Virus record (IMG/VR): IMGVR_UViG_3300047678_000431
Span: 21,174-85,173 of that record
Strand: one strand, 5' to 3'
Origin: a virus
Length of the DNA: 64,000 nucleotides
Under the pieces are notes generated by a model that searched no databases, was not told where the DNA came from, and saw only the letters and a list, made by a program, of their open reading frames with translations. Below, in pieces: positions 11,051 to 59,594 of the stretch (the first letter of the stretch is position 1; each line of letters starts with the position of its first letter). The position numbers and the translations under genes were made by a program.

Positions 11051-11794
11051 ATGAGATCGTACGGCGTCAAGTCTCGGGACTTTCATACCGAGCGTTTTGG
11101 CCTTTTCGTCCCGGATCGTCCGGCCGTCGGATTACTCCCGACGACGGTTGAATATCAATATCTCTTTTCGCCCGTTGACGATCAAGGCGATTTTTCCAGT
11201 TGTATTTTCCACGCGAGCAAAGGCATTCTCGACGCGATCATTCGGAAGCGATCGAAGGTCGATCCGGGTGTATCTTGGCGCGCGTTATATTCCGCAACGA
11301 AGCATCTGTTCGAATCGAATGATCTTGCCGATGACGGTGCGGTTATCGAACACGGCCTCAATTTGCTCATGCAATACGGATACGTCGAAGAATCCGCGTG
11401 GACCGATGTCGACGTCACCCCCGACAATGTGTTGACTCCGGTGCCCGATGATCTCTTCGTGAAAACCGATACGGTCACAAGTATTCTTCGCGTCGGTATC
11501 AACGAAGAAAGCTTTTGTCACGCGTTATATGGTCACGGCCCGATTATCATCGGCGTGAATTGGCCGAGTGCGTGGGAATTTCCAACCGATGCGAGCGGCA
11601 TTCTTGATCCGAATGTCTCCGACATTGCGGGCGGTCATTGTGTCGTCATCACCGGGTATCGCCGACAGTCGAACGTCACGTATTATCACATTCGCAATTC
11701 GTGGGGCACTGCATGGGGTGATCGCGGTTATGGGTGGATGCCCGCAAGCGGACTCGGGTTCGTCACAAACGCCTACACCGTTCAAATTCCCTAG
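11051..11794 (+). CDS. Papain-like (C1 family) cysteine peptidase
   Basis: 247 residues, with ATG 5 bases after GAGG. The full papain signature is visible: Gln45 (oxyanion hole) six residues before Cys51 in QGDFSSC, His196 in GGHCVVITGYR, and Asn216 in RNSWGTAWGDRGYGW. The domain spans nearly the whole protein and there is no signal peptide or obvious propeptide. It ends 17 bases before the portal gene and is probably co-transcribed with the head genes. It could process a virion protein or be delivered into the host. C1 peptidases are uncommon in phages. Confidence 0.85.
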   Translation: MRSYGVKSRDFHTERFGLFVPDRPAVGLLPTTVEYQYLFSPVDDQGDFSSCIFHASKGILDAIIRKRSKVDPGVSWRALYSATKHLFESNDLADDGAVIEHGLNLLMQYGYVEESAWTDVDVTPDNVLTPVPDDLFVKTDTVTSILRVGINEESFCHALYGHGPIIIGVNWPSAWEFPTDASGILDPNVSDIAGGHCVVITGYRRQSNVTYYHIRNSWGTAWGDRGYGWMPASGLGFVTNAYTVQIP

Positions 11795-11811
11795 CACGAA
11801 GGAGCGCCGCG

Positions 11812-13548
11812 ATGCCGTCATTGATTTCCTCAATACAAAAAAGCGTCGCGCGCATCCTCGCCGGTCCCGACATTAACATTCCGCGTAAAGGTGCGATCTC
11901 TCCGGTTTCAATCAAACAAGATCGTCAGTTTATGGACGGCGGTCGGATCGAGCCGCGCAACATCATTGCGCGCAATAACCTGCAATCGCTTGCCGAGCGT
12001 GATGATGTGATCGTCGCCCTTCGCCGCGTGTTGCGCAACGGTATCGGAAATCTCAAATGGCACATAGTCCCCGATATTGACGCAATCGAAGCCGACATCA
12101 AGCGATGGAAATCGACCGTTGCGCTGAACCTTGCCATGCCGGGCATGCACATGACGTTTCATCCGCAGGCGATGACGCATGAGTTTTATGCTGGTGCAAC
12201 CGGTGAGTTGCGCGATCTTCTCGTTTCTGAAGCTGAAACAGGTGCCGAGTTCGAAACCTCGACGCGATTGCATCAATTTTTCGAAAACATTCTCGCCGCG
12301 CATAGCGTGATCGCGGAAAGTCACGTCGCCGAGGTGAAGTCCCTCTTCGATAAACCGAACGCAAATGACACCTGGAGAAGTTTCATTTCGCGGGTTGTTG
12401 ATCAGTTGTCGCTCTTCGATGCCGCTGCAATCGTGAAGAATCCGATGATGAACGAAGATCGCATCGGTGAGATCTATCTTCTGCCCGGCGAAGACGTGCG
12501 CGTCTATCGTCGGCGCGATCTTCTCCAACCGATTCCGCCCTTTACGGCGTTTGATTGGTCGGTCAATGATCGGATCTTCGCGTATTTCAATGCGTTTGAA
12601 ATGTGCTATATTACCGCGAACCCGCAGCAGAACGGATACGGGAAACCGCCGCTTGAGGCGCTCGTACAACAAATGCTCGGATCAATTTCCGGTGATCAGT
12701 ATCTTCTCGAATTCTTCGCAAATAATAACATGCCCGCCGGTATCTTTGACCTCGGCCCGAACGTTGATCAAGGTGAACGAGACGCAGTCGAAACGCACGT
12801 GAACAATCAAGCGCGCAAAGGTTTGCGGCGCATTATGTTCGTGTCGAACATGGATGGCGTCAAGGGATTTATGCCCATGCCGCAGCAGCCGATGAAAGAT
12901 AATGACATCGTCAACATGTTCGACATGTGGACGAAGCGAAAAGCTGCCGTCTTTGGGCTTTCTCCGAATGACATCGGACATACGCAAGATATGCATCTTG
13001 CAAATGCGGATAATCAAGCCGAACTGACGCAATCTCGCGGCATTGATTCGATCGCCAAAGCAATCGAGAACGAACTCAATGTCCATATCGTCAAAGGTAC
13101 GATGTGGCGCCGTAATAATCCCGAAGACGTCAATGATCCGACCGGTATTCCGATGCCGGTCTTTCCCTTTCAAGACGTACGATTCGAATTTATTACCGGC
13201 GAGAAGGATGAGAACGCCGATCTCTCTGATCGTGATCTCAAACTTTGGGGCATGGGCGCCCTGTCGACAAACGAGATTCGCAAGTCGCATGGATTGCCGC
13301 CGGTCCCCGGCGGTGATACGCATGTCGTCAATCAGCAGGTGACGATGAAAGTCGATGACCTGCCGAATCTTCCCGCGCCGACGCAAATGGACACTGAGGT
13401 CCGCTTGCCCGATGGCCGCGAGCGTGATGAACGTCCAGGCGCAAACGCGCAGCAAAACGAGCAAAGACCGCCGACGCCGTCACCGGAACAGGCGGAAAAA
13501 AACCTTACCGCGTTAGCTCATAAGCTCGCGCAGATCGTCAAAGGGTGA
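11812..13548 (+). CDS. Portal protein
   Basis: 578 residues from ATG 11812, after GGAGCG. Portal-like features: an N-terminal region with RDDVIVALRRVLRNGIGNLKW, a long central helical stem region, and a late QAELTQSRGIDSIAKAIENELN helix typical of the portal clip/wing in Mu-like and SPP1-like proteins. A Gln/Pro-rich tail (~535-578) follows. It forms the dodecameric vertex through which DNA is packaged. The next downstream proteins are Mu-F-like and protease genes, as expected. Confidence 0.85.
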   Translation: MPSLISSIQKSVARILAGPDINIPRKGAISPVSIKQDRQFMDGGRIEPRNIIARNNLQSLAERDDVIVALRRVLRNGIGNLKWHIVPDIDAIEADIKRWKSTVALNLAMPGMHMTFHPQAMTHEFYAGATGELRDLLVSEAETGAEFETSTRLHQFFENILAAHSVIAESHVAEVKSLFDKPNANDTWRSFISRVVDQLSLFDAAAIVKNPMMNEDRIGEIYLLPGEDVRVYRRRDLLQPIPPFTAFDWSVNDRIFAYFNAFEMCYITANPQQNGYGKPPLEALVQQMLGSISGDQYLLEFFANNNMPAGIFDLGPNVDQGERDAVETHVNNQARKGLRRIMFVSNMDGVKGFMPMPQQPMKDNDIVNMFDMWTKRKAAVFGLSPNDIGHTQDMHLANADNQAELTQSRGIDSIAKAIENELNVHIVKGTMWRRNNPEDVNDPTGIPMPVFPFQDVRFEFITGEKDENADLSDRDLKLWGMGALSTNEIRKSHGLPPVPGGDTHVVNQQVTMKVDDLPNLPAPTQMDTEVRLPDGRERDERPGANAQQNEQRPPTPSPEQAEKNLTALAHKLAQIVKG

Positions 13549-46258: not shown

Positions 46259-47956
46259 ATGATTGAATTACGCCCCTATCAACGCGCGGCGATCGACGCA
46301 GTCAAGGACGGCATCCGGCGCGGCCTGCGATCCATGCTCATCGTGTTACCGACCGGCGCCGGGAAGACCGTCGTCTTTTCAGAACTGCCTCGTGAAATCG
46401 ACGCACGCTTCGTCCTCATCCTCGCGCACCGCGACGAATTGATTGACCAGGCGGTCGCGAAGTATCAGCGATCGAACCCCAACGCCGTCGTCGGCAAAGA
46501 GGCGAACGTCTTTCGGGCCGATGCCGCGTGCGCGGTCGTGGCCGCATCGGTGCAAACCCTTCAGGGTGACCGCCTGCGCGAATTCCTTGCCCGCAAGGGC
46601 ATTCCCGACCTCATCGTGACAGATGAGGCACATCATGCCGTTTCCCCCTCGTACACGGCAATCTATGAGGCGATAGGGGCATCCGCAACACACGTCGGCG
46701 TCACGGCGACCCCGAATCGCGGCGATAAGATCGGCCTCGACACCGTCTTCGAGGAAATCGTCTATGCGATCTCGCTGCCGGAACTCATCGCGCAGGGGTA
46801 TCTCGTCGACCTTACCGGCTACGTCGTTCACACAACGACGACCCTCACGGGTATCAGCCGGACGAAAGGCGATTTTGCGCAAAAACAACTCGCCGAAGCG
46901 GTGAACACCGAAGAACGCAATGCGCAGGTCGTGCGCGCGTACCACGACCTCGCTGGAGGGAAGAGGGCAATCGTGTTCGGGGTCGACGTCGCGCATTCAC
47001 TCGACCTCTGTGATGGATTCCGCGCAGCCGGATACCGTGCGGCGCATATCGACGGCAAGACTCCGAAAGATCAACGCGCGCAGATTCTCGCCGAATTCGC
47101 GCGCGGGGCGGTCGAGGTCTTGTGTAATTGTGCGGTTCTCACCGAGGGGTTCGACGAACCCGCGATCGAGTGCGTGATCCTTGCCCGGCCGACCATGTCC
47201 GCCGGATTGTATGCGCAGTGCATCGGGCGCGGCACGCGACTCCATCCGGGAAAAACCTCGTGCATCGTGATCGACATGCACGACATCTCGCGCACGAAAT
47301 CATGTTATGCCCTCCCGGCGCTTTTCGGTATGCCGCCAAACTTTGACCTCGCGGGTCGGGCGGCACTCGGCGCCGCGCGTAAACTCGCGGCCATTGCCCC
47401 CGATTGCGATCTCGTCGGCGAGGTTCTGCTCGACGCCTACTCGCTCGATGCGCTCGAAGGATGCCCCCCGGAATTGCGTCTCGCGATGCTCGTGCAGGCG
47501 ATCAAAGAGCAAAACGACTTGCGATATGTGCCGGTCGAACTGTTGCGTCCGCGTCCGGTGCCGCAATACGTCAAGGACACGGCGACCTTGAATTGGTTCG
47601 CATCGGATGAAACGCGCTTTTGTTTGCGCTTGCCTGCCGAAATGATAACCGTGGAAGAAAATCAACTCGGCGCGTGGGACGTGATTCTCGCGCCTTCAGG
47701 ATTGCAACCGATGCACATCGGGACGCATGCCGGTATCGCCAAGGCGATCGCGCAGGCGGAATCCTGGGTCCGCACGCAGCGCCCGAAGGATCTCCCGGGC
47801 GTCGACCTTGCCGCCCCCTGGCGCGCGGCTCCGGGTACCGGCGCGCAACGTTCGCGCCTGAAGAAACTCGGCGTCTATACGCCCCGGAAACACGATCTTT
47901 CCCGAGGGGAGATGTCCAACATGATCGAGGCCCTCTCAGTGCTCTACCATGCCTAG
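46259..47956 (+). CDS. SF2 DEAH-box helicase
   Basis: 565 residues. All core motifs are visible: LRPYQRAAIDAV (Q-like), LPTGAGKTVVF (I), LAHRDELIDQ (Ia), TDEAHHA (II, DEAH at ~122), GVTATPNRGD (III), TEGFDEPAIECV (V) and QCIGRGTRLHPGK (VI). Similar to UvsW/RadD-like helicases of phages and bacteria. It would unwind branched DNA in recombination or replication. Overlaps the next gene by 8 bases. Confidence 0.9.
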   Translation: MIELRPYQRAAIDAVKDGIRRGLRSMLIVLPTGAGKTVVFSELPREIDARFVLILAHRDELIDQAVAKYQRSNPNAVVGKEANVFRADAACAVVAASVQTLQGDRLREFLARKGIPDLIVTDEAHHAVSPSYTAIYEAIGASATHVGVTATPNRGDKIGLDTVFEEIVYAISLPELIAQGYLVDLTGYVVHTTTTLTGISRTKGDFAQKQLAEAVNTEERNAQVVRAYHDLAGGKRAIVFGVDVAHSLDLCDGFRAAGYRAAHIDGKTPKDQRAQILAEFARGAVEVLCNCAVLTEGFDEPAIECVILARPTMSAGLYAQCIGRGTRLHPGKTSCIVIDMHDISRTKSCYALPALFGMPPNFDLAGRAALGAARKLAAIAPDCDLVGEVLLDAYSLDALEGCPPELRLAMLVQAIKEQNDLRYVPVELLRPRPVPQYVKDTATLNWFASDETRFCLRLPAEMITVEENQLGAWDVILAPSGLQPMHIGTHAGIAKAIAQAESWVRTQRPKDLPGVDLAAPWRAAPGTGAQRSRLKKLGVYTPRKHDLSRGEMSNMIEALSVLYHA

Positions 47957-52873: not shown

Positions 52874-53287
52874 ATGCGTCAGCAGCGAACCTCGCATCTT
52901 CGGCGTCGCCCGATGCTTCCTACTCATCCCGACGTGACGGCCGCAATGCGTGTCGCCCTCGGCGAGGAATACGCGCAAATTCTCGACTGGGCCGTTCGCG
53001 CCGCCGTCGAAGAAATGCTCGCCGTACAACGCCGGTCGATCGTGCGTTTCCGGGGGTCGGTCCGATCAGACCTCGATCAAGATACCATCGGATCGCAAAC
53101 GTTCGCGAAATACCACCTTCGCGGGCAATACGCCGCATGTGACGGCATGATCGACGTGATCAACGGCATTGAAAGCCGAGACATCGTCCGATCGGTCGCG
53201 ATGCGCATGCAGGCCGTACGATTGCGCCGGGAAGCGCAAAATCTTCCGTGGGTCGCAACCTATCATCGTCCGAGTATCGCCGCATGA
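52874..53287 (+). CDS. Hypothetical protein
   Basis: 137 residues from ATG 52874 (a TTG at 52868 and an ATG at 52913 are alternatives). Helical, positively charged. Its stop overlaps the next ATG. Function unknown. Confidence 0.6.
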   Translation: MRQQRTSHLRRRPMLPTHPDVTAAMRVALGEEYAQILDWAVRAAVEEMLAVQRRSIVRFRGSVRSDLDQDTIGSQTFAKYHLRGQYAACDGMIDVINGIESRDIVRSVAMRMQAVRLRREAQNLPWVATYHRPSIAA

Positions 53288-53451
53288 TGGAATCGCTCAT
53301 GCCTCGGATGCATTGTCCCGATTGCGATCAGACATATCGCGCGACCAAGGAGCACGAACTGCGCACCTGCCGTCTCTGTGGCGGCCGCGACGTCGTCGAA
53401 ACGCAGGCCGTCAATGTGACGTCAACCGTGTCCGTGAGTCCAAACCCGTGA
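53284..53451 (+). CDS. Small zinc-ribbon protein
   Basis: 55 residues in an ATGA overlap. CPDCDQTY and CRLCGGRD form a classical two-knuckle zinc ribbon. The rest is a polar tail. Next gene starts in a GTGA overlap. Confidence 0.65.
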   Translation: MMESLMPRMHCPDCDQTYRATKEHELRTCRLCGGRDVVETQAVNVTSTVSVSPNP

Positions 53452-53669
53452 CGAGTTTCGGACCGGTGACGCTTTCCGTTGAATCCATCGACGGACTATC
53501 AAAGCTCACCATACGACGGGAATCGGGATCGACTCGGGTGCGTGTCGAGATTGCCCGAGAAGAGGTCGACGGATTACGTCGCCGGATCATCGAAGTCGTC
53601 GACGGCCTCGATATTGACCGGCGCTCGTTACTTGATTTCGCGCATTCGATCACGGATGGTTTGCTTTAG
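53448..53669 (+). CDS. Hypothetical beta/alpha protein
   Basis: 73 residues with GTG start in an overlap. Strands (FGPVTLSVES, STRVRVEIA) then a helix. Converges with a minus-strand gene over 4 bases. No family. Confidence 0.55.
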   Translation: MTSFGPVTLSVESIDGLSKLTIRRESGSTRVRVEIAREEVDGLRRRIIEVVDGLDIDRRSLLDFAHSITDGLL

Positions 53670-54079
53670 GCGTTTCTCGCTCCGAGAAATTCCAGCAGCG
53701 CGATTTCGATCGCAGTGCTTTTGGAAGATCCGATGCGCTCGGCCCATTCACAGATACGATCATGAACTTCCGGCGGAAGGGTGATGCTCGTCCGCACGCG
53801 CTTTTGTGCAAGAGGCGGACGACCGGTGGACACCGATATGCTGACGCCTTCGTGTAATGCATGCTCATACGCGCGATACGCCTGGCGCCATGCTCGGTTT
53901 TTGATCATGTCGTCATCGGCATGGTGTTGATAAAGATGTTCTTGAATGGCGCGAAAGGTTTTCGCCCGAACTTCGTGTCGGCATTTCTGATCGAGCCAAC
54001 CGACGAGTGTTGCGTACGTGATTCTCTGGGTCGGATGTTTAATCCATTGCACGAAATGCGGCGTGATGTTCTTGCGCAT
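53666..54079 (-). CDS. Ribbon-helix-helix protein with N-terminal extension
   Basis: 137 residues if started at ATG 54079; the longer frame uses a TTG lying inside a palindrome. C-terminal RHH: KRVRTSITLPPEVHDRICEW then SSKSTAIEIALLEFL. The N-terminal ~85 residues are helical and basic. Possible repressor. Palindromes directly upstream are candidate operators. Confidence 0.65.
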   Translation of the reverse strand: MRKNITPHFVQWIKHPTQRITYATLVGWLDQKCRHEVRAKTFRAIQEHLYQHHADDDMIKNRAWRQAYRAYEHALHEGVSISVSTGRPPLAQKRVRTSITLPPEVHDRICEWAERIGSSKSTAIEIALLEFLGARNA

Positions 54080-54087
54080 GATGTGGG

Positions 54088-54124
54088 GGAAAAGGCGCCT
54101 TTCGTCTTGGTACAAAAGGCGCCT
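54088..54124 (-). repeat. Paired GGCGCC palindromes between two minus-strand genes
   Basis: AAAGGCGCCTTT-type palindromes centred near 54095 and 54119, 11 bases apart. Each is self-complementary and they can also pair with each other. It can act as an intrinsic terminator for the upstream gene (54137-54532) or as an operator for the RHH gene. Confidence 0.55.
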
Positions 54125-55162: not shown

Positions 55163-55384
55163 ATGCTCGAGCCGCGAGATCTTTGCGCAAGTAATATTCG
55201 ATGCAAGGAATGCGGCAAGCGCCTCTATTTTGGCGCCTTCGCAAGCGCGCATCTCGAAACCGTCGTGATGTATGGTCAGAATCTTTTGACGCTCATGATG
55301 ACGACCCATATCATGAGTGGTCACATTGTCGGCACCGAGGAAGAACTCGAACGCTTCCACGTCCCGATACCGAGCCCGGTATGA
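55163..55384 (+). CDS. Small protein with CxxC pair
   Basis: 73 residues. NIRCKECGKRLYFGAF is a half zinc-ribbon. The later part has no second CxxC. Its stop overlaps the next ATG (ATGA). Confidence 0.55.
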   Translation: MLEPRDLCASNIRCKECGKRLYFGAFASAHLETVVMYGQNLLTLMMTTHIMSGHIVGTEEELERFHVPIPSPV

Positions 55385-55596
55385 ACGAGATGTCACAAGA
55401 CGCAAGGCTCGCGGAAGTGCGGCGATTGCGGGAAAACTTTCTGCAAACGAAGACTGACGTCGTTAAATATATCGACGAATATACCGAACGAAAGATACGT
55501 GAGTTACAAGATCATTGCCCACATGGCGATTGGTTCGAGATTTCGCATGACCGATTTTGCAACGCATGCGGATACCGTGAATGCATCCTGGAATAA
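55381..55596 (+). CDS. CPH...CxxC family protein 1
   Basis: 71 residues. A long helix ends in LQDHCPHGDW, then CNACGYRE. Same plan as the genes at 55778, 56011 and 56304: a coiled-coil helix, then Cys-Pro-His and a CxxC pair, presumably one zinc site. Function unknown. Confidence 0.7.
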   Translation: MNEMSQDARLAEVRRLRENFLQTKTDVVKYIDEYTERKIRELQDHCPHGDWFEISHDRFCNACGYRECILE

Positions 55597-55787
55597 TCGA
55601 ATCGGCGGCGTTCTTTAACTTGCTCGCGACGTTGTATATCGGGATTCTCTTTCTCGCAAATACACTGCCGCGATCGAATAAGAAGACGATTCTCGTCTGG
55701 GGCGTGCGATTATGGGTCTTTCTCGTTTGTTCAGAGGTGTTCGTGTTTGTAGCGATGTCGATACGGTTTGCGCACTCGTGCCGGTAG
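55581..55787 (+). CDS. Two-pass small membrane protein
   Basis: 68 residues. Hydrophobic segments ~8-27 (AFFNLLATLYIGILFLANTL) and ~36-60. Overlaps the previous gene by 16 bases and the next by 10. Could be holin-like, but it is inside the CPH family array and away from the lysins. Confidence 0.6.
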   Translation: MHPGIIESAAFFNLLATLYIGILFLANTLPRSNKKTILVWGVRLWVFLVCSEVFVFVAMSIRFAHSCR

Positions 55788-56014
55788 ATTTCACGAAAGT
55801 CTTCAACGATGCCGCTGAGGCGCGCAAGGTGCGTGCGGATGAACTTGCCGCATATAATATGCTGATCGCTGAATCCGAAAAGCGATATAAAGAGAAGATG
55901 AAACGGCTTCAGGATTCATGCCCGCATGATTTTCAATCTCATGTCGGATATTCGAAAGAAGATGTCTGTCGCGCATGTGATTATGCAAAGCCGGAATCCG
56001 GTCGATACCGATGA
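55778..56014 (+). CDS. CPH...CxxC family protein 2
   Basis: 78 residues from GTG 55778, which overlaps the preceding membrane gene (an earlier in-frame ATG at 55712 is less likely). LQDSCPHDF then CRACDYAK. The helix before the motif is acidic/basic and long. Its stop overlaps the next ATG. Confidence 0.65.
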   Translation: MPVDFTKVFNDAAEARKVRADELAAYNMLIAESEKRYKEKMKRLQDSCPHDFQSHVGYSKEDVCRACDYAKPESGRYR

Positions 56015-56304
56015 CTATCGACATTGAGATTGCGCGGAAAATTCGCATCGAAGCCGACGAATCGCATGCGATGAATAAAGCGCGACTCATGGACGATCTT
56101 TCAATCGTGCAGCAACGATTCGCAGAGAACGATCGGCGATATGAATGCGTGTTGCAAAAGATTCGCCGCGAATGTCCGCACGATTTTCGCCTTCGAGAAG
56201 AGGCGCGACATGTACTCGGCGATGGTTTATCGGCCGTGTACGATCATTCGGTCGAGATCAAAAGATGCGCGATATGCAATTACACGGAGGAGCGAAAATT
56301 GTGA
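56011..56304 (+). CDS. CPH...CxxC family protein 3
   Basis: 97 residues in an ATGA overlap. IRRECPHDFRLREE, then CAICNYTEE. Longer spacing between the two halves of the metal site than in copy 2. Confidence 0.7.
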   Translation: MTIDIEIARKIRIEADESHAMNKARLMDDLSIVQQRFAENDRRYECVLQKIRRECPHDFRLREEARHVLGDGLSAVYDHSVEIKRCAICNYTEERKL

Positions 56305-56555
56305 TGACGCTCGAGGAAGTGAAAGATCGCGTTGCGATTGCGAATCGCCAACGGTGGGCGACGATTGACGAATGTCATCGGTTTTATCAAGTAACCCTTG
56401 CCGCATTTCAGCGGGAATGCCCTCACGAGTGGTCTGAATTCCAAGTTGATCATTGGACCGAAGATTTTCCCGGTGGAACGGCGACGCTTGGTAGTATGAG
56501 CCTGCGAAAATGCAATGTCTGCGAATTTCAAGAAAAGATCACGAATGAGAACTGA
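56304..56555 (+). CDS. CPH...CxxC family protein 4
   Basis: 83 residues from ATG 56304 (GTG 56301 possible) with GGAGGAG upstream. FQRECPHEWSEFQ, then CNVCEFQE. The last member of the array. Overlaps the exonuclease gene by 11 bases. Confidence 0.7.
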   Translation: MTLEEVKDRVAIANRQRWATIDECHRFYQVTLAAFQRECPHEWSEFQVDHWTEDFPGGTATLGSMSLRKCNVCEFQEKITNEN

Positions 56556-57126
56556 ACGGCATGTGTATGTCGGATTCGATCTCGAAACGACAGGCCTCGA
56601 TCCCCTGCGGCACGGCATATGTGAAATCGGCGCCGTCGCGACCTCTTCGCGGGGTGAGATTGTCGGACGATTCCGGGAAGATTGCAATCCCGGCCTCGAG
56701 TTCGGTATCGAGGTCGATCCGTCTGCCCTGGCGGTGAATAAGTTCACGCTCGATCGTATTGAAGATGCCCCGTATATCGGCAGTGTCCTCACGCGATTCT
56801 TCACGTTCTTGCACGATCTTCGTGATCAACCGGTCATCGTTTCGCAAAACTCGCCGTTCGATACGGGATTCATGCTCGCGGCTATGCGCCGGGAGCGTAT
56901 GGACATCGCCGAGATTGGCCGCCCCTTCCGGCGTGGCCTCGATACGATTTCGATCGCCTTCGCTACCCTAGGCGACGGCCTGCTCCATTCGCAATCTTCC
57001 CTCTCGAAGGTCATGGGATTTCCCCCGGACCCGCGCGCCCATACCGCAGAGGCCGACGCCGAGCGTTGCATCATGCTTTTTCATGCGTTGTCCGATATGA
57101 ACGAAAGACGGCGAAAAAAGATCTAA
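56545..57126 (+). CDS. DnaQ-like 3'-5' exonuclease
   Basis: 193 residues. DEDDh motifs: VGFDLETTGLDP (Exo I), SQNSPFDTGFM (Exo II), and HTAEADAERC (Exo III with His and Asp). A stand-alone exonuclease; no polymerase domain. May act in proofreading, repair or end processing. Confidence 0.85.
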   Translation: MRTERHVYVGFDLETTGLDPLRHGICEIGAVATSSRGEIVGRFREDCNPGLEFGIEVDPSALAVNKFTLDRIEDAPYIGSVLTRFFTFLHDLRDQPVIVSQNSPFDTGFMLAAMRRERMDIAEIGRPFRRGLDTISIAFATLGDGLLHSQSSLSKVMGFPPDPRAHTAEADAERCIMLFHALSDMNERRRKKI

Positions 57127-57381: not shown

Positions 57382-57988
57382 AACCGAAAAATCCGGCGAT
57401 TCTCCGCAACCTACGCGCGCGCGCACGCGCGAGGGTGAGAAGAATCAAGAACGCACGCACGCACGCACGCAAACACGCAAACAATCAATTCCCCCTGATG
57501 AGGATGCCGATCGACGAAAGTCGCTTTCCGGCCCGATTCCGCTCGACTCGCCGCTCAAAGAACCCTACATCGAAAAATCTTACGACATGTACGTCCGCAA
57601 GCAGATGAGCTTCTCGCGCATCGCCGAGGCGCTCGGTATCAACCGAGACACGGTGTCGGCGTATGTGAAGTTCGAGTCGACCCGTCGCAGTGAAGAAAAC
57701 GCCGCTATGCGCACGGCCAACATCGAGCGCAACCTCGAGTCGCTCGCGATCGTGGAGGAGACAAACATCTCCCGTATGTTCGCCGCCGACCGCCGGGGTG
57801 ACGAGGCGCGATACGTCCTCGAAGCGTGCAAGCAGCGGATGATGCTACTCGGCCTCGATGAGGGCGTCGTGATCAAGGATGAACGCAAACATGCAAACCC
57901 CTTCGAAGGACTCGGGAGAGACGAACTCGTCGCCATCCTCAAAAACGCCCCAACCGGCGGCGCATTCCACCGACCCGACTCACGATGA
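57335..57988 (+). CDS. Terminase small subunit candidate
   Basis: 217 residues. A Pro/Lys/Thr-rich N-terminus includes QERTHARTQT from TGCG element e. Residues ~80-115 contain a helix-turn-helix: MSFSRIAEALGINRDTVSAYVKF, as in small terminases that recognise the packaging site. Helical oligomerisation region after it. Directly overlaps the large subunit by 110 bases. Confidence 0.65.
   Translation: MTPETPKPPKSTKSPKTEKSGDSPQPTRARTREGEKNQERTHARTQTRKQSIPPDEDADRRKSLSGPIPLDSPLKEPYIEKSYDMYVRKQMSFSRIAEALGINRDTVSAYVKFESTRRSEENAAMRTANIERNLESLAIVEETNISRMFAADRRGDEARYVLEACKQRMMLLGLDEGVVIKDERKHANPFEGLGRDELVAILKNAPTGGAFHRPDSR
57446..57475 (+). repeat. TGCG-tract element e (30-base exact repeat)
   Basis: A run of ACGC units in coding frame of the small terminase gene. 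Identical over all 30 bases to the complement of 39149-39178 in the RHH gene, where it is also in the frame giving QERTHARTQT. Confidence 0.8.
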
Positions 57989-59594
57989 ATTTGAAACGGA
58001 TGATTCGGTAGTCGACAACTGGGATCGCGCGATTCCGGCGGCCGATCTCCCGGAAACCGGGCTCCCGGAAATCGGCGGCGATCCGGCCGAAGCGGACGAT
58101 CACCTGCTCGGCCTCTGGGAACAGGCGAAGAAAGTCCTCATCTATCAGCGGCCGGAAACCGACGACGAACTGCACGATTATATTCGGGTCTTTCTCGGTG
58201 TCGACATTCCACGCGTCGCCGTCTGCCCGGGTCATCAATCGAGCTTTCAGGCGATTTCCGACCTGTTTTTCATGCGGTATCCGCACGAGAATTTGCTTCT
58301 CATCGGCGGACGCGGCACCGGTAAGACGCTCGGGTTCGCCCTTGTCGAGCACCTGCTCATGTTCTTTGATAAGGACACGATCGCAAACGTCGGCGCGGTC
58401 GAGGCGCAGGCCCTCAAGTGCTATTCCTACATTCAGCGTATCAACCGTGACCCGCTTTTCGCCGAGCACGTGCAGAGTTCGATGCTCTCGAAAACCGTGT
58501 ATAAGAACGGCGGCGAGATCGAGATTCTCCCCGGCACGATGGCGCGCGTGAACTCGCCGCATCCCCGGCTTGCCTGCCTTGACGAGGTCGACCTCTTACC
58601 GTGGCCGATTCTGCAAGAGGCGCTCTCGATGCCGATCAGAACGAACGGCCGCCCCCCGCAAACCGTCTACACATCGAGCCTCAAAAAACGATACGGGCCG
58701 ATGGTCAAACTCCTTGAGGAATCGACCGAGCGCGCGATCCGCACGTACACCTTTTGCGTGTTTGAGGTCATCCAAACGTGCGAACCTGAGCGTCATCAAA
58801 ACGGTGAAGGTTGCTTCACGTGCCCGCTTGCGAAAGAATGCCTCGACTCGATTACGCACGCCGACGGTACGACGGAATATATGCCCGGACCCGGCAAGGC
58901 CGCACGCGCGAAAGGGTTCATGCCCGTCGACGACGTGATCAAACAATTCAAATCGCTCGACAAAGATACATGGGACTCGCAGTGGCGATGCAAGCAACCC
59001 TCGGCGAAAAACCTCGTGTATCCGACGTTCGATCCGAATATTCACGTCATCGACTACGAATGGCAACCGAACCTTCCCGTGTATGCCGGGTTCGACTTTG
59101 GGTTCACGAACGCGTCGGTCGCGGTCTATGTGCAGCAGTTGCCGACCGATGAATTCGTCGTCTTCGCCGAGGACTTTGCGACCTTGCGCGACGCCGTGCA
59201 GTTTGCGGAATCGGTCAAGTCGGAACCCTGGTTCTCGACGACCCTGAATCGACAGGGTGATCCGGCGGCCGCCGACGCGCGCGCAACCTTCAACCGGCTC
59301 GGCATTGCGATCGCGGCCGCGAACAACTCGAAGGACGTTTCGCGTGACGATTCCGGCATCTCAAAAATCCGCTGGCTTCTTGCTCCACCGGGAAGCGTGC
59401 GGCCGCTTTTATATATCTCGCGGAAGTGTGTGAACCTCATCCGCGAGATCAAGAGTTATCACTTCGCGGAATTAAGTGCGACGGCCGATAAGAACAGTAG
59501 AGAAGATCCGGCAAAGGTCGACGACCATGCGCTCGACGCCCTGCGGTATATCATCTCGAAACTCGTCAAGCACAAAGAGCCGAGGAGAGATTAG
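57879..59594 (+). CDS. Terminase large subunit
   Basis: 571 residues (Met5 also possible as start). ATPase: Walker A GGRGTGKT (~142-149), Walker B LACLDEVDLL (~233). Nuclease: AGFDFGFTNASV (first Asp), and VDDHALDALRYI near the end. A four-cysteine insertion, C-x10-C-x2-C-x5-C (CEP...CFTC...EC, ~301-324), may bind zinc and is not usual in terminases. It cuts and pumps DNA into the prohead. It lies ~46 kb from the portal gene in this linear window. Confidence 0.9.
   Translation: MNANMQTPSKDSGETNSSPSSKTPQPAAHSTDPTHDEFETDDSVVDNWDRAIPAADLPETGLPEIGGDPAEADDHLLGLWEQAKKVLIYQRPETDDELHDYIRVFLGVDIPRVAVCPGHQSSFQAISDLFFMRYPHENLLLIGGRGTGKTLGFALVEHLLMFFDKDTIANVGAVEAQALKCYSYIQRINRDPLFAEHVQSSMLSKTVYKNGGEIEILPGTMARVNSPHPRLACLDEVDLLPWPILQEALSMPIRTNGRPPQTVYTSSLKKRYGPMVKLLEESTERAIRTYTFCVFEVIQTCEPERHQNGEGCFTCPLAKECLDSITHADGTTEYMPGPGKAARAKGFMPVDDVIKQFKSLDKDTWDSQWRCKQPSAKNLVYPTFDPNIHVIDYEWQPNLPVYAGFDFGFTNASVAVYVQQLPTDEFVVFAEDFATLRDAVQFAESVKSEPWFSTTLNRQGDPAAADARATFNRLGIAIAAANNSKDVSRDDSGISKIRWLLAPPGSVRPLLYISRKCVNLIREIKSYHFAELSATADKNSREDPAKVDDHALDALRYIISKLVKHKEPRRD

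What the first reader, a model, noticed from the sequence alone, without database searches (positions are those of the whole stretch)
55381..56555. Tandem array of four CPH...CxxC small proteins
Genes at 55381, 55778, 56011 and 56304 share a helix, a CPH[D/E/G] turn and a CxxC end but little else, with overlapping starts and stops. A membrane protein is inserted between copies 1 and 2. This looks like repeated duplication and fast divergence, as seen in host-interaction genes.
Basis: seen in the sequence. Interest (0 to 1): 0.6.

Follow-up and report, generated by a model that had tools for sequence, protein, structure and literature searches.

The report
Four diverged phage zinc-ribbon gene copies
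A phage of uncultured origin carries four neighbouring small genes that look like strongly diverged copies of one helix-plus-zinc-ribbon protein; such small proteins of unknown role occur in other phages, and the unusual part is only the tandem run of four.

Summary
Four ORFs (55381-55596, 55778-56014, 56011-56304, 56304-56555) each carry a predicted helix, CPH and a CxxC, in overlapping, same-strand order. They are the only CPH..CxxC ORFs in the 85,173-base virus record, against 0.095 expected per simulated window. With the motif left out, the 30 residues before CPH still relate neighbouring copies (p 0.0008, 0.0002, 0.009) but not non-neighbours. This fits stepwise tandem duplication with deep divergence. 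AlphaFold gives copy 4 as a long helix plus a beta hairpin with CPH and CxxC at its ends, a zinc-ribbon layout (mean pLDDT 91); copy 2 has the same helix but a weaker ribbon. No family matches at significance and no orthologue was found. The same helix-CPHE-CxxC layout occurs singly in other phages, for example PHROG 25683 and 4837, function unknown. 'Fast divergence' and 'host interaction' are untested, because no orthologue gives a rate. Best reading: co-translated small zinc-ribbon adaptor or binding proteins in an operon that runs into a DnaQ-like exonuclease and terminase. Ordinary to moderately interesting.

The parts
55381..55596 (+). copy 1: 71 aa, helix, CPHG at 55516, CNAC; short hairpin
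   Evidence: aligns with copy 2 over 57 residues, BLASTP E 1e-7 for the single pair
55581..55787 (+). small ORF with two hydrophobic stretches between copies 1 and 2; no family match
   Evidence: membrane character by inspection only
55778..56014 (+). copy 2: 78 aa from GTG 55778 (start uncertain), helix, CPHD at 55919, CRAC
   Evidence: AlphaFold2 helix 5-47, mean pLDDT 83.7, ribbon less sure
56011..56304 (+). copy 3: 97 aa, helix, CPHD at 56173, long loop, CAIC
   Evidence: own-genome tblastn finds copies 2 and 4 (E 7e-5 and 2e-4)
56304..56555 (+). copy 4: 83 aa from ATG 56304, helix, CPHE at 56418, long hairpin, CNVC
   Evidence: AlphaFold2 helix 3-38, strands 43-52, 61-70, 76-78, mean pLDDT 91.3
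56545..57126 (+). DnaQ/RNase T-like 3'-5' exonuclease overlapping copy 4 by 11 nt (same run of genes)
   Evidence: Pfam RNase_T 1.5e-16, PHROG 192 5.9e-31
55163..55384 (+). preceding small ORF with one CxxC, ATGA overlap with copy 1; no CPH
57879..59594 (+). terminase large subunit, downstream landmark
   Evidence: PHROG 10250 2.5e-19

Best explanation
The four genes are paralogues made by successive tandem duplication of one small gene whose product is a long alpha helix followed by a four-ligand (Cys, His, Cys, Cys) zinc ribbon. The overlapping genes are translated in a coupled way from one message that continues into an exonuclease and the terminase. The conserved ribbon keeps each product folded, while the helix and hairpin, which have diverged, form the binding surface. 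Each copy probably acts as a small non-enzymatic adaptor that binds a different phage or host protein, or nucleic acid. Shown: four copies, relatedness of neighbours, overlapping genes, predicted helix and ribbon. Inferred: zinc binding, translational coupling, adaptor role and targets.
For: All four CPH..CxxC ORFs of the record lie in 1.2 kb (null 0.095). The helix, compared with CPH as anchor but left out of the score, is similar between neighbours at p 0.0008, 0.0002 and 0.009, but not between non-neighbours (0.25, 0.25, 0.095); a homologue pair from other phages (L041/L075) scores p<0.0002 as a positive control. Motif-masked local alignment agrees for 1-2 (p 0.006) and 2-3 (p 0.002). The profile of copies 1+2 aligns to that of copies 3+4 over 49 columns including the helix; with other phages' proteins the alignments shrink to 26 and 11 columns around the motif. 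AlphaFold2 gives helix plus a hairpin with the C/H and C/C pairs at its ends. Helices of copies 1-3 have a hydrophobic stripe (moment p 0.004, 0.09, 0.06). Predicted pI is 5.1-7.7, which argues mildly for protein rather than DNA partners.
Against: Copies 3-4 are not significant in the motif-masked alignment (p 0.11) and six pairs were tested. Copy 1 lacks the genome's codon bias. AlphaFold ran on nine sequences that I chose by the motif, without zinc; copies 1 and 3 were not folded; ligand geometry was not measured. No significant fold match. No experiment or family names a function.
Confidence: 0.55

Rival explanations
1. Convergent recruitment: four unrelated small genes of the common phage helix-CPH-CxxC type were collected side by side, and the shared motif reflects only the zinc site.
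For: The motif is widespread: other phages carry single genes with it, and full-length alignments between copies and outside phage proteins score well because of the motif (for example copy 1 with L029, z 9.3).
Against: With the motif removed, neighbouring copies stay similar far more than outside proteins do. All four in 1.2 kb of 85 kb is unlikely for independent arrivals.
Confidence: 0.17
2. Counter-defence or host-takeover cassette: each copy blocks a different host defence or host enzyme, and duplication diversified the targets.
For: Small, diverged, overlapping genes ahead of replication and packaging genes; a repressor-like gene lies just upstream on the other strand (53666-54115, PHROG 876 E 0.0026).
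Against: No rate of divergence could be measured; expression time unknown; defence library not searched with these ORFs; no target.
Confidence: 0.2
3. Accessory nucleic-acid factors: the copies are small subunits or partners of the exonuclease and terminase encoded next to them.
For: Gene overlap with the exonuclease and terminase 1.3 kb downstream.
Against: Neutral to acidic proteins; overlap is general in this run of genes; no co-occurrence data.
Confidence: 0.2

Closest known systems
PHROG 25683 / 4837 small phage proteins (L073)
   Same: long N-terminal helical part, FQEECPHE, aromatic residue, long spacer, CxxC; unknown function
   Different: array copies do not match these families; the outside protein has an extra N-terminal part and is a single gene in the stretch read
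PHROG 9150-like proteins (L075; weakly L041, L029)
   Same: helix, LQxxCPHE or LKxxCPHE, CxxC near the C-terminus
   Different: very short spacer between CPH and CxxC; alignment with array copies covers mainly the motif
Duplicated CPHEW proteins of L031
   Same: two paralogous CPH..CxxC genes in one phage contig
   Different: nearly identical copies 2.8 kb apart; residues before CPH are GGE/NGE rather than a helix end
Haloferax C(P)XCG zinc finger micro-proteins (PMC6562870, PMC11241148)
   Same: very small proteins with one predicted zinc site, many per genome; most tested ones bind zinc but several do not, per the title of PMC11241148
   Different: two C(P)XCG knuckles, not CPH plus CxxC; archaeal. 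Compared from titles and abstracts only

Membership tests
PHROG 25683 / 4837 | significant match to the family profile | tested here: not met
   no hit listed for any copy up to E 10
PHROG 9150 | significant match to the family profile | tested here: not met
   no hit listed for any copy
zinc ribbon (structural class) | beta hairpin with two metal-ligand pairs at its ends | tested here: met
   copy 4 model: CPH at 39-41, strands 43-52 and 61-70, CxxC 70-73; copy 2 weaker; copies 1 and 3 not folded
zinc ribbon (structural class) | binds zinc | not testable with these tools
   four conserved potential ligands only
zinc ribbon (structural class) | significant structural match to a solved zinc ribbon | tested here: inconclusive
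   no PDB match at E <= 0.001; small query, low power
tandem gene-duplication array | neighbouring genes homologous beyond the shared metal motif | tested here: met
   for all three neighbouring pairs (3-4 borderline after correction); motif-masked alignment for two of three
fast-evolving host-interaction genes | high substitution rate against orthologues | not testable with these tools
   no orthologues found
anti-defence proteins | match to a known family or tested activity | not tested
   no activity data; Pfam, PHROGs and NCBIfam give no significant match

The most novel reading that the evidence does not exclude
The array is a small diversifying module: a phage keeps one zinc-ribbon scaffold in several tandem copies and varies helix and hairpin so that each copy blocks or redirects a different host factor.
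Probability: 0.15. Interest if true: 0.6.

Novelty: new member of a known kind. Interest (0 to 1): 0.28.

Why it matters
Small phage genes of unknown function are many. A run of four diverged copies on one scaffold is a compact natural set for asking what the scaffold binds: what is constant is the fold, what differs should mark the target surface. If the copies do hit different host factors, the array would show how a phage widens its toolkit by duplication.

Tried and rejected
Two collection scans used a pattern that encodes C-x-C instead of C-x-x-C; their hits are out of frame or meaningless and were discarded; one search repeats the second correctly. The profile of the four copies hits eukaryotic ribosomal protein S27a first among solved structures, at E 0.13: not significant, dropped. 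Weak phage hits of single copies (PAK_P1, S-T4; E about 2) were read: the PAK_P1 protein shares only helix and has no CPH, the S-T4 stretch is cysteine-rich without CPH. DUF3427 with copy 2 (E 0.0066, below its cut-off) is taken as chance. Searches for close relatives by terminase, exonuclease, copies 3 and 4 gave none. The terminase neighbourhoods of Mx1 and Mvi-JY20 and the Tunturi_3 and Tunturi_4 genomes show no CPH..CxxC ORF of this type. DNA-level repeats between copies: only 15-16-base matches. Hits of the motif scan in cellular genomes (L079-L082) lack a CxxC downstream.

Full report
What is there. The window lies in an 85,173-base virus record at 21174-85173. Portal, terminase, helicase and a nucleotide phosphatase mark it as a tailed phage. 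Its terminase has no near relative among 50,697 phage records (about 23% identity for the two hits that cover most of it); its helicase is nearest to phages of the acidobacterium Tunturiibacter (34% over 98%), so an acidobacterial or other soil host is a guess, not a result. They belong to a dense run of same-strand, mostly overlapping small ORFs from about 54886 that leads into a DnaQ-like exonuclease (56545-57126) and, after one more gene, the terminase (57879).

Is it more than chance? A frame with CPH, 5-50 residues and CxxC appears four times in the record, all in this stretch. In 200 windows simulated with a second-order Markov model of the same sequence the mean is 0.095 and the maximum 2. 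Codon usage supports the frames of copies 2-4 and is neutral for copy 1; for copy 3 one antisense frame scores higher than its own.

Are they copies of one another? The metal motif alone makes unrelated proteins look alike, so I compared with the motif left out. In the 30 residues before CPH, aligned without gaps, neighbours score p 0.0008 (1-2), 0.0002 (2-3) and 0.009 (3-4); non-neighbours 0.25, 0.25 and 0.095. Of 20 comparisons with five motif-sharing proteins of other phages, five fall below 0.05 and the lowest is 0.014: a mild likeness of the helix end (LQD before CPH), weaker than between neighbours. A homologue pair from other phages scores p<0.0002. After correction for six pairs, 1-2 and 2-3 stay significant and 3-4 is borderline (0.054). 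Motif-masked local alignment agrees for 1-2 and 2-3, not for 3-4, though 3-4 align over 64 residues when the motif is kept and share the long spacer. Profile comparison of copies 1+2 with 3+4 spans helix and ribbon (49 columns); comparisons with outside proteins shrink to the motif. A chain in which each gene is most like its neighbour is what serial tandem duplication leaves. The membrane-type ORF either came in later between copies 1 and 2 or was part of a larger duplicated unit; the data do not decide.

What do the proteins look like? AlphaFold2 on a nine-sequence alignment gives copy 4 as helix 3-38, CPH, strands 43-52 and 61-70, CxxC, short strand (mean pLDDT 91.3). Copy 2 has the same long helix and a less certain ribbon (83.7). 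Cys and His before the first strand and Cys-Cys after the second is the layout of a zinc ribbon. Foldseek finds nothing significant among viral or solved structures, as expected for so small a shape. Zinc was not modelled.

What is known? No Pfam, PHROG or NCBIfam family matches at significance. Yet the layout is not unique: scans of viral contigs gave small genes with a helix running into CPHE and a CxxC behind it (L029, L041, L047, L073, L074, L075, L076). These were selected by the motif, so they show that the layout exists elsewhere, not how common it is. L073 belongs to PHROG 25683 and 4837, L075 weakly to PHROG 9150, all of unknown function. One contig has two near-identical CPHEW genes (L031), so duplication of a CPH..CxxC gene has a precedent. 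I found no paper on tandem arrays of this protein type, but the library is partial.

How does it work? The likeliest account is four small binding proteins on one zinc-stabilised scaffold, made together from one message. The helix has a hydrophobic stripe in copies 1-3 and the proteins are neutral to acidic, which suits protein partners, or pairing with one another, better than bare DNA. Whether partners are the phage's own exonuclease and terminase or host proteins is open. I put the duplication at about 0.8 and the adaptor role at about 0.5; the joint statement is scored 0.55 because the adaptor part is worded broadly. The rival readings of function overlap with it and with one another.

Verdict. 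The thing is a new, diverged array of a known but uncharacterised kind of phage protein.

Noticed in passing
window 46259-47956: Helicase nearest to Tunturiibacter (Acidobacteriota) phages Tunturi_3 and Tunturi_4 (34% and 29% over nearly full length): a lead on the host.
   Followed up: partly
window 53666-54115 (-): Minus-strand gene with a weak match to a transcriptional repressor family (PHROG 876, E 0.0026), just before the plus-strand run of genes that holds the array.
   Followed up: no
window 53248-53451 and 55163-55384: Two more small cysteine-pair ORFs near the array (CPDC..CRLC; CKEC), without CPH.
   Followed up: partly
L031 1499-1738 and 4303-4665 (-): Two near-identical CPHEW..CxxC genes 2.8 kb apart in one viral contig.
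   Followed up: partly
L085 9264 and 10579 (+), Tunturi_3: Two related CNH-KGG..CxxC proteins in the structural gene region of Tunturi_3, another doubled CxH..CxxC type.
   Followed up: no
window 11734-13548 and 57879-59594: Portal and terminase genes lie about 44 kb apart in the record instead of side by side as in many tailed phages.
   Followed up: no
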